The notes beneath the pieces are model-generated. The model saw only the letters and a list, made by a program, of their open reading frames with translations, ran no database searches and was not told where the DNA came from. The position numbers were made by a program, and so were the translations under genes. From assembly GCA_021801345.1 (NCBI GenBank), contig JAJYYA010000029.1, forward strand, positions 1 through 46,432: DNA of 46,432 nucleotides. The letters are read 5' to 3'. This document shows, in pieces, positions 27,736-30,568 of this stretch (position 1 is the first letter of the stretch; every line of letters begins with the position of its first letter). The DNA is from Nitrospirota bacterium. GTDB lineage: Bacteria > Nitrospirota > Leptospirillia > Leptospirillales > Leptospirillaceae.

Positions 27736-28892
27736 TGCGGATCCTTTTTTACGCCACAAACGGTCTGGGTCTCGGTCATGTCACGCGCCTTCTGGCGATC
27801 AGCCGGGCCGTCGCCCGCCGGGATCCCCGTCATGAACGCCTCTTTCTGACTCGGTGCGAGGCCGGCCCTTACCCCGACCCGCTCGATCCCTTCACCATCA
27901 GGATCCCCGGGGCCTCCCGGGCCCGGAAGGCCGGGCTTACGCCCAAGTCCTACTTTCAGACGGCCCACCCCCTCCTGTGGCAGACCGTCTCCTCTTTCGA
28001 CCCGCACCTGATGGTCGTCGACACCTTCCCCGAGGGCCCCGAAGAGGAGCTTGCGCCCCTCATGCGATGGCCGATCCGGAAGGTCTTCATCTACCGCGAC
28101 TCCCGAAAGGAGGCCTTCCCGAACGGGGCGATCCCGTCGCTCTTTGCTCCCTACAGTCTGATCATCGTTGCCCACGAGGAGGGGTCGGTGACCCTTCCCG
28201 AAGCCCTTTCGCGGGACGTCCGGGTGCATTTTTCAGGCCCCATCACCGACGGGGGCCCCACCCGGGAGACTCGAGAGGATCTGAGACGTCGTCTGGGGAT
28301 ATCCGAGGGGGAGAGGGCCGCCATCGTCACCCTCGGAGGGGGGGGCGACGGCGAGACACTCCCCGTTCTCGACCGGGTCGCAAAGGAACTTCGTGGGCGA
28401 GGAGTGACGGTTTTTGCCGCAACAGGGCCGCTCTCCCGGACCCTTCCCGATGCGATCACCGCCCGGGAATGGTTCCCGGTCTGGCCCCTTTCCCCTTGGC
28501 TATCCGCCTTCGACCTCGCCGTGGGAAGCGGAGGATACAACACGGTGACCGAGCTCTCGCTGTCGGGACTTCCCACACTGCTCATTCCCTTCCTCCGCGA
28601 TACGGACGACCAGACGAAAAGAGTCGAGGAAGCCCTGTGCCAGGGGTGGGCCATCAAGGTCGAGAATCGGCAGGAGATCCCCGCCGGGATCGATCGGCTC
28701 CTCCGCATGGGCCGCCTCCCCGGGAGATCCGAAGCCGGGGGGGGAGGAGCGGATCGGGCCGCCGAGCTTCTTCTCTCTCTTTCTCCGGGGCTTTCTCCGG
28801 GTGGTCCGCCGGGCGAGGCGGCCGGACGGGGTTCGGCCGGAGATCCGGGTTCCCCCCCAGCCTCTCACAAAATGTCAACCACCCCGCCGTGA
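27735..28892 (+). CDS. MurG-like (GT28-type) glycosyltransferase
   Basis: A 385-aa GT-B protein. The N-terminal ILFYATNGLGLGHVTRLLAISRAV matches the Gly-rich, His-containing start of GT28-like enzymes; GSGGYNTVTELSLSGLPTLLIP is the C-terminal donor-binding motif, as in MurG. The start is ATG 27735, overlapping the previous stop. The last 40 residues are Gly/Pro/Ser-rich and look unnatural for the family. The stop TGA (28890-28892) lies inside the left-end hairpin of the downstream IscB element, so the C-terminus is probably altered by that insertion. Cotranscription with pspA and the TPR gene suggests an envelope role. Confidence 0.8.
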   Translation: MRILFYATNGLGLGHVTRLLAISRAVARRDPRHERLFLTRCEAGPYPDPLDPFTIRIPGASRARKAGLTPKSYFQTAHPLLWQTVSSFDPHLMVVDTFPEGPEEELAPLMRWPIRKVFIYRDSRKEAFPNGAIPSLFAPYSLIIVAHEEGSVTLPEALSRDVRVHFSGPITDGGPTRETREDLRRRLGISEGERAAIVTLGGGGDGETLPVLDRVAKELRGRGVTVFAATGPLSRTLPDAITAREWFPVWPLSPWLSAFDLAVGSGGYNTVTELSLSGLPTLLIPFLRDTDDQTKRVEEALCQGWAIKVENRQEIPAGIDRLLRMGRLPGRSEAGGGGADRAAELLLSLSPGLSPGGPPGEAAGRGSAGDPGSPPASHKMSTTPP

Positions 28893-29166
28893 ACGGCGGA
28901 GCTTGAAAGGAGGTTCGACAAGCTCGGTTGACCAGGGAGAGCGGTAGCCAACCCGCTACGTTGCGTACAGGTCCAAGACCCACCGGCGGATGCTTCCTCA
29001 GTCCGCCGCGTCTTTCAGGTCCGTATCATGCTGGCGAAAGGCAAAGCGCCGAAGGTCCGGACCGCCGCGCAAGCGGAGCCGGTTCGTGACATTCCCGAGG
29101 GGAGACGCCTCGCAAGAGGCGCGTGACGGTCGAAAGACCAGGGGAACGTAAGTTTTTCGGGAGGTT
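28870..29166 (+). ncRNA. omega-RNA (HEARO RNA) of IscB
   Basis: A 278-base gene-free stretch directly before iscB with many stems: CCGCCG/CGGCGG (28884-28899), CGGCGGA/TCCGCCG (28984-29008), CGCCTC/GAGGCG with a GCAA tetraloop (29106-29121) and GGTC/GACC with a GAAA loop (29128-29139). Known IscB proteins use such an RNA, whose 5' end supplies a guide of about 16 bases copied from flanking DNA. By that rule the guide would be just upstream of about 28870, in the 3' end of the glycosyltransferase gene. The exact ends are inferred. Confidence 0.7.
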
Positions 29167-29169
29167 CCG

Positions 29170-30540
29170 ATGCAGGTTTTCGTGCTCGACAAACGCAAGA
29201 AGCCTCTCATGCCCTGCCACCCGGCCCGGGCCCGGGAGCTTCTGGATAACGGCAAGGCGGGGGTCCACAAGATCGCCCCCTTCACGATCCGTCTCAAGGA
29301 GCGGGTCGGAGGCGTGGTCCAGACGGTCCGGATCAAGATCGATCCGGGATCGAAAACCAGCGGCATCGCCGTGGCCCGGGAGGAGACGACCGTCTCCCCA
29401 AAGACGGGAGAGACGGAAACGACCGCCCACGTCCTCTTCCTGGCGGAACTGACCCACCGGAGAGGGTCGATCAGGGACAGCCTCACGCCCCGGAGAGCCT
29501 TCCGGAGACGGCGGAGGTCGAAGCTTCGCCACCGGGCCCCGCGCTTCGACAACCGGACCCGTCCGGAGGGGTGGTTGCCTCCGTCCCTGCACCACCGGGT
29601 CGATACGACTGTCTCTTTGGTGGAGCGTCTTCGGAAGAGCGTCCCGGTGGTGGCAATCAGCCAGGAACTGGTCCGGTTCGATCTGCAGAAGATCGAGACC
29701 CCGGAGATTGCCGGGGTCGAGTACCAGCAGGGGACGCTCGCCGGATACGAGGTCCGGGAGTACCTGCTGGAGAAGTGGGGCCGGACCTGCGCCTACTGCG
29801 GGAAGACGGACGTGCCGCTTGAGATCGACCCTATCCATCCCCGCTCGAAGGGCGGATCGGACCGCGTCTCCAACCTGACGCTGGCCTGCCGCCCCTGCAA
29901 CGAGCGGAAGGGAAACCGGGACGTGGAGGCGTTTCTTAAAAAGAAGCCGGATCTTCTGAAAAACCACGCCCGGGCCAAGACGCCCCTTCGGGATGCCGCC
30001 GCGGTGAACGCCACGCGGTGGCCCTTGTTCGAGAGGCTGAAACGGACGGGTCTTCCGGTCGAGACGGGTTCCGGCGGAAGGACGAAACACAACCGGACCC
30101 GGCTTGGGCTCCCGAAGACCCACAGCCTGGATGCCGCCTGCGTCGGGAAGGTGGCTCGGGTGGAGGGCGGGAACCCTCCCGTCCTTGGCATCAAGGCCAC
30201 GGGACGAGGAAGCTACCAGAGAACCCGTCTCGACGCCTTCGGGTTCCCGAGGGGGTTCCTGACCCGGAAGAAGAGTCATTTCGGGTTCCAGACCGGAGAC
30301 TTGGTCCATGCGGTGGTGACGACAGGCAAGAAGATCGGAACCTATGTCGGACGGGTGGCCGTCCGGGCCTCCGGGAGTTTCAACATCCGGACCGGCTCCG
30401 GAGTGGTCCAGGGCGTTTCTCACAAAGCCTGTCGATGTCTTCAAAGAGGAGACGGATACGGGTATTCGCTTTCAACCAAAAACAGAAAGGCGAGCGCATT
30501 CCTCCCCGGCATCAATGCCGGGGTCGGAAATCGCGCCTGA
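29170..30540 (+). CDS. iscB: IscB RNA-guided nuclease with altered HNH site
   Basis: A 456-aa Cas9 ancestor-type protein. The PLMP domain is at residues 1-50 (KKPLMPCHPARA), RuvC-I has Asp58 in IKIDPGSKTSG, the Arg-rich bridge helix is at about 108-130, and RuvC-II has Glu166 (SQELVRFD). The HNH domain at about 200-255 has zinc-knuckle cysteines 207, 210, 240 and 243, and Asn235. RuvC-III has His318 and Asp321 (THSLDAA). The C-terminal TAM-interacting part follows. The HNH catalytic His expected after Asp220 is Pro221 (codon CCT at 29830-29832), so the HNH cut is probably lost while RuvC remains. ATG 29170 follows GGGAGG. The last residues are encoded by the right-end hairpin. It should act with the upstream RNA. 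Confidence 0.92.
   Translation: MQVFVLDKRKKPLMPCHPARARELLDNGKAGVHKIAPFTIRLKERVGGVVQTVRIKIDPGSKTSGIAVAREETTVSPKTGETETTAHVLFLAELTHRRGSIRDSLTPRRAFRRRRRSKLRHRAPRFDNRTRPEGWLPPSLHHRVDTTVSLVERLRKSVPVVAISQELVRFDLQKIETPEIAGVEYQQGTLAGYEVREYLLEKWGRTCAYCGKTDVPLEIDPIHPRSKGGSDRVSNLTLACRPCNERKGNRDVEAFLKKKPDLLKNHARAKTPLRDAAAVNATRWPLFERLKRTGLPVETGSGGRTKHNRTRLGLPKTHSLDAACVGKVARVEGGNPPVLGIKATGRGSYQRTRLDAFGFPRGFLTRKKSHFGFQTGDLVHAVVTTGKKIGTYVGRVAVRASGSFNIRTGSGVVQGVSHKACRCLQRGDGYGYSLSTKNRKASAFLPGINAGVGNRA
30504..30523. repeat. Right-end hairpin of the IscB element
   Basis: A perfect inverted repeat CCCCGGCA/TGCCGGGG with a TCAA loop, located inside the last codons of iscB. Subterminal hairpins at both ends are the transposase recognition structures of IS200/IS605-type elements. 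It could also end the iscB transcript, though no T-run follows. Confidence 0.65.
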
Positions 30541-30568
30541 GGATGACCGCCTCCTCCGGAGTTCCTCT

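What the first reader, a model, noticed from the sequence alone, without database searches (positions are those of the whole stretch)
29170..30540. IscB with the catalytic HNH histidine replaced by proline
The sequence shows an IscB with intact RuvC residues (Asp58, Glu166, His318, Asp321), zinc-knuckle cysteines and HNH Asn235, but the block where relatives have D/E-H-I-x-P reads D-P-I-H-P. A single A to C change (CAT or CAC to CCT or CCC class) explains it. From Cas9 and IscB work, this His is needed to cut the target strand. I infer a natural nickase using only RuvC, or an RNA-guided binding protein. The His two residues later (His223) might partly stand in.
Basis: partly seen in the sequence, partly recalled or inferred. 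Interest (0 to 1): 0.78.

Follow-up and report, generated by a model that had tools for sequence, protein, structure and literature searches.

The report
One IscB copy with broken HNH
One of more than ten copies of an RNA-guided DNA-cutting mobile element in this bacterium carries a single-letter mutation that replaces a key residue of one of its two cutting sites, which looks like private damage to one copy rather than a new kind of enzyme.

Summary
Window 29170-30540 encodes an intact 456-aa IscB with its HEARO/omegaRNA (28874-29110) just upstream. Residue 221 is Pro (CCT, 29830-29832) exactly where relatives have the HNH catalytic His. The alignment has no gap there, and His223 is an ordinary residue of this clade, not a displaced catalytic His.

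The genome holds about ten more IscB copies plus fragments. All nine other copies with a readable HNH, and every other uninterrupted IscB examined (about 125 distinct sequences), have His. P221 is private to this copy, one A-to-C step from the CAT of its closest paralogs. A chance hit on one of seven catalytic residues is unremarkable (P about 0.22 for this copy; 0.95 hits expected over the genome's copies). The lineage shows normal purifying selection (omega 0.15, background 0.146) and the rest of the HNH is conserved, so the mutation is probably recent. A sister species has the empty site.

Best reading: a standard mobile HEARO-IscB element in which one copy lost HNH catalysis, leaving at most a RuvC-only nicker, with no sign that nicking is selected. 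A sequencing error cannot be excluded without reads.

The parts
28858..28873 (+). Presumed guide segment: the host flank directly 5' of the element (CAGCCTCTCACAAAAT), which would form the 5' end of the omegaRNA
   Evidence: Lies immediately upstream of the element's left end GTCAACC; guide position inferred from published IscB/HEARO architecture
28874..30542 (+). Mobile HEARO-IscB element, from GTCAACC to GAGG, inserted directly 5' of ATGA
   Evidence: Ends shared with paralogous copies; sister genome G010 contig 87 (L142) has the empty site CACACAAAAA|ATGACCGCC
28874..29110 (+). HEARO RNA / omegaRNA scaffold (RF02033)
   Evidence: 89.7 bits, gathering score 83, full-length model match; siblings score 84-100 bits
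29170..30540 (+). iscB, 456 aa; RuvC and zinc-binding residues intact
29758..29955 (+). HNH domain (residues 197-262) with embedded Cys4 zinc site C207/C210/C240/C243
   Evidence: Pfam HNH 45 bits at residues 207-250; alignment
29830..29832 (+). Codon 221 CCT (Pro) in place of the catalytic His (CAT or CAC in all close relatives)
30543..30546 (+). ATGA at the 3' junction, shared by the copies with a readable right junction; likely insertion target and TAM (inferred)

Best explanation
This is an ordinary mobile HEARO-IscB (OMEGA) element, one of about ten copies in this genome. Shown: its ends, its omegaRNA, its ATGA-adjacent insertion site with an empty site in a sister species, and an intact reading frame. 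Shown: one private A-to-C substitution turned the otherwise invariant catalytic His221 of the HNH nuclease into Pro in this copy alone. Inferred: the HNH can no longer cut the guide-complementary (target) strand. If the protein still folds and loads its RNA, it would nick only the non-target strand through RuvC at a target matching the 5' flank next to ATGA, or just bind. Inferred: this is recent, unselected damage to one copy of a multicopy family, not an evolved nickase.
For: Nine other same-genome copies with a readable HNH, and all 6 sister-genome copies covering the site in the alignment, have D-H. No other uninterrupted IscB out of about 125 distinct sequences has lost this His. Sibling copies carry other private damage: L013 lost zinc ligand C243 (Gly), L017 is interrupted, L018 is frameshifted. 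Nine private changes in this copy fall on 258 otherwise invariant columns; a chance hit on one of 7 catalytic residues has P about 0.22, and 0.95 hits are expected over the genome's copies. The rest of the HNH shows little change on this branch (3 nonsynonymous, one of them H221P, against 7 synonymous). Branch omega is 0.151, background 0.146, and omega = 1 is rejected by 38 log units, so the frame was maintained for most of the branch and the loss is probably late. The omegaRNA is intact and an empty site exists in the sister genome.
Against: The reading frame is intact, with about 5.5 nonsense changes expected on a neutral branch of this length and none seen. Strong purifying selection over the branch is also compatible with the mutant protein still doing something useful. 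A branch-wide omega cannot date the single substitution. Copies recombine (mosaic omegaRNA), which complicates the tree.
Confidence: 0.72

Rival explanations
1. A selected natural nickase: HNH inactivation was favoured (for example less toxic self-cutting), and the copy now works as an IsrB-like RuvC nicker that promotes element copying by nick-induced recombination.
For: RuvC residues and omegaRNA are intact and the branch omega is 0.15. IsrB shows that RNA-guided nicking alone can persist in this family (PMC9581776).
Against: No relative shares the change, it is in one copy only, there is no accelerated or compensatory pattern in the HNH, and chance suffices.
Confidence: 0.08
2. Fully inert protein: Pro in the HNH core strand, plus other private changes and a one-codon deletion near residue 265, disrupts folding or RuvC activation, so the copy neither cuts nor nicks. 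Its omegaRNA may still serve sibling IscBs in trans. (Overlaps with the best explanation, differing in what activity remains.)
For: Private V31G, P52T, N177T, L266H and the codon deletion near 265. Many sibling IscBs exist, and three omegaRNA-only elements in the genome suggest use in trans.
Against: Lineage omega is not relaxed and no stop or frameshift is present. omegaRNA similarity to siblings is only 71-89%, so cross-loading is uncertain.
Confidence: 0.25
3. Sequencing or assembly error at 29830-29832; the true protein has His221.
For: Draft genome of 73 contigs, several of which end inside IscB copies; no reads are available.
Against: This copy is at most 87% identical to the others in protein and lies mid-contig, so repeat collapse is unlikely. 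It carries many other private differences.
Confidence: 0.12
4. Double-strand cutting is retained because His223 takes over as general base.
For: His223 is two residues on in the same segment.
Against: His223 is usual in this clade beside an intact His221 (15 of 28 Nitrospirota, 11 of 52 viral sequences), so it did not arise to compensate. The AlphaFold model was too weak in the HNH to judge geometry.
Confidence: 0.03

Closest known systems
IscB / HEARO (OMEGA) RNA-guided nuclease family, nearest annotated relative found in the plasmid collection: Allochromatium tepidum IscB, 64% identical
   Same: RRXRR domain, split RuvC, HNH with zinc site, upstream RF02033 RNA, insertion directly before a short motif, multicopy mobile element
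   Different: Catalytic HNH His221 is Pro in this copy only
IsrB natural OMEGA nickase (PMC9581776)
   Same: Predicted outcome: RuvC-only nicking of the non-target strand
   Different: IsrB has no HNH domain at all; here a full HNH domain with zinc site is present with one mutated catalytic residue
Engineered HNH-dead Cas9/IscB (SpCas9 H840A, own knowledge; the TbaIscB chain 9k30 carries Ala at the aligned position, presumably engineered)
   Same: Loss of the same catalytic His
   Different: Natural, Pro instead of Ala, untested

Membership tests
IscB/HEARO | RRXRR/PLMP N-terminal region | tested here: met
   PF14239 228 bits, residues 3-188
IscB/HEARO | Split RuvC catalytic residues D58, E166, H318, D321 | tested here: met
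IscB/HEARO | HNH domain with zinc-binding Cys4 | tested here: met
   PF01844 45 bits; C207, C210, C240, C243
IscB/HEARO | HNH catalytic His | tested here: not met
   P221, His in all other uninterrupted relatives. It is an IscB by descent (71-87% identity to full-length IscB copies); what fails is the claim of an intact two-nuclease enzyme
IscB/HEARO | HEARO/omegaRNA directly upstream | tested here: met
   RF02033 28874-29110, 89.7 bits
IscB/HEARO | RNA-guided DNA cleavage | not testable with these tools
   needs biochemistry
IsrB | Lacks the HNH domain | tested here: not met
   HNH domain present, residues 197-262
IsrB | RuvC-only nicking activity | not testable with these tools
   predicted, not measured

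The most novel reading that the evidence does not exclude
A full-length IscB that lost only its HNH catalytic residue and is maintained as a working RNA-guided RuvC nickase, a second route (besides IsrB) to natural nicking in the OMEGA family.
Probability: 0.07. Interest if true: 0.5.

Novelty: new member of a known kind. Interest (0 to 1): 0.2.

Why it matters
If the mutant were maintained, it would show that a full-length IscB can persist as a nickase, and it would help test what IscB cutting is for. As found, it mainly illustrates how multicopy IscB elements decay. In this survey about 5% of open IscBs (five, plus this one) had lost a catalytic residue of one nuclease, and the other five were all RuvC losses. 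Anyone mining genomes for natural nickases should require conservation among relatives before inferring function.

Tried and rejected
His223 as displaced catalytic residue: rejected by the ungapped alignment and by its presence beside His221 in relatives. A conserved Pro221 clade: none in the genus, family or phylum, GTDB contigs or viral contigs. A pseudogene from the start: rejected by omega 0.15 and the open frame. Structure prediction from a 10-sequence alignment gave pLDDT 65 with a poor HNH, no help on geometry. Ancestral reconstruction was not available, so parsimony polarisation was used. The PubMed Central searches run here turned up no report of a natural HNH-dead IscB among the titles and abstracts listed; the papers' full texts were not all read, and two key papers (HEARO discovery, OMEGA discovery) are not held. 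A conserved RuvC-dead clade around L079/L190: not supported, close relatives are intact.

Full report
Observation. The window encodes a complete 456-aa IscB at 29170-30540 (+). Pfam RRXRR and HNH match well above their cut-offs, and the nearest solved proteins are IscBs. A HEARO RNA (RF02033, 89.7 bits) lies at 28874-29110, just upstream.

The element. The genome (G000, window = contig 10) has 19 matches to this IscB: seven full-length or nearly full-length copies including this one, two copies cut by contig ends that still cover residues 72-454, one interrupted copy (C73), one frameshifted copy (C27 near 7 kb), several end fragments, and one unrelated HNH protein. It has 14 HEARO RNAs. Where the ends can be read, copies begin with GTCAAC and end in a GAGG-like 3' end immediately before ATGA. 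The sister genome G010 has the empty site CACACAAAAA|ATGACC, so the window copy is an insertion at 28874-30542. In G010 the upstream gene ends at this site (AAA AAA TGA); in the window its last codons are replaced by element sequence and the stop moves to 28890-28892 (reading by eye). By published IscB logic the 5' flank (28858-28873) is the guide and ATGA the probable TAM (inference).

Is Pro221 more than chance? Position 221 is His in nine other same-genome copies with a readable HNH and in the sister-genome copies, with codons CAT or CAC; the closest paralogs have CAT, one A-to-C step from CCT. In 52 distinct viral, 49 genome-contig and 28 Nitrospirota sequences (a few shared between sets) the only exceptions are two interrupted pseudogenes (L102, Tyr; L018, frameshifted). 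The search patterns used for the viral set did not include this site, so they do not favour His. Pro221 is therefore private to this copy. The copy has nine private changes at otherwise invariant columns. With 258 such columns and seven catalytic residues, a catalytic hit has P about 0.22 for this copy, and about 0.95 hits are expected over the genome's copies. This null treats invariant columns as equally mutable, which is crude. Sibling L013 has lost a zinc Cys (C243G). Private changes per branch length are not exceptional: nine over 0.124 here, five over 0.070 in L011. Nothing here requires selection.

Selection. A two-ratio codon model on 15 copies gave omega 0.151 for the window branch against 0.146 elsewhere; omega = 1 was rejected (lnL -10802.1 against -10763.6) (the script reached its time limit after these fits, and only two comparison fits, L013 and L012, were lost). 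By parsimony the window branch has 53 nonsynonymous and 69 synonymous changes, of which the HNH has 3 and 7. The frame has been maintained and the HNH shows no relaxation apart from Pro221, which fits a late event. It would also fit a mutant whose HNH fold is still needed to position RuvC, so the timing is inferred, not shown. Copies show mosaic omegaRNAs (the window's is 89% like C38a and 83% like C61, while its protein is closest to C61), so they recombine and the tree is approximate.

Mechanism. Most likely, HNH catalysis of target-strand cleavage is lost, and RuvC can still nick the non-target strand if the protein folds and is activated. An inert protein is the main rival. His223 is present in many intact relatives, so it is not a compensating change. 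The AlphaFold model was too weak in the HNH to test geometry. In an OrufIscB structure the HNH metal site uses a tripartite His cluster, unlike Cas9 (PMC13180657); the present clade has Asp220 and Asn244, which looks Cas9-like (inference).

Comparison. It is an IscB/HEARO member by every tested feature except the catalytic His. It is not an IsrB, which lacks the HNH domain (PMC9581776). IscB/HEARO elements seldom sit beside TnpA (PMC9755519), and no Y1 TnpA was found in this genome although 8 of the 14 genus genomes have one.

Verdict. The biochemical inference of a broken HNH is reasonable. The larger claim of a natural nickase is not supported; a private, probably recent change in one copy of a partly decaying multicopy family, or less likely a sequence error, explains everything seen.

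Noticed in passing
L079 3001-4266; L198 1501-2775; L190 1501-2748; L157 499-1899; L089 3001-3903: Open IscBs with RuvC catalytic losses (L079 D58K/H318K/D321E; L198 D58C/H318K; L190 D58A; L157 E166K; L089 H318R) but intact HNH; HEARO RNA confirmed for L079, L190, L198 and L157 (L089 not scanned). RuvC loss is commoner than HNH loss in this sample; close relatives of L079/L190 are intact, so these look sporadic.
   Followed up: partly
own genome C4:18669-18964 (L150), C59:65646-65940 (L152), C73:103476-103770 (L153): Three omegaRNA-only elements of about 430-445 bp with the same ends as the IscB elements and no IscB ORF beyond a remnant of its last codons, inserted before ATGA: non-autonomous elements that may guide sibling IscBs in trans.
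   Followed up: partly
L010, L011, L016, L152, L153: Several copies lie directly in front of what reads as a host gene's start codon (ATGA), between ribosome-binding-like sequence and ATG, so insertion could alter expression of the downstream gene (coding reading by eye).
   Followed up: no
whole genome G000: No Y1 TnpA (PF01797) found despite 14 HEARO/IscB elements, while 8 of 14 genus genomes have it: the family may be stranded here.
   Followed up: partly
L013 802-2166 (G000 contig 38): A sibling IscB with zinc ligand C243 replaced by Gly in an otherwise open frame.
   Followed up: no
L102 and the other Desulfobacter latus loci (L053-L072): Desulfobacter latus AcRS2 holds more than 20 closely similar IscB copies; L102 contains three HEARO RNAs within about 3 kb and a copy with Tyr at the catalytic His plus a stop.
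   Followed up: no
L019 226-300 (G000 contig 71): Weak group II intron match (41.8 bits, cut-off 40) near an IscB 3' remnant.
   Followed up: no
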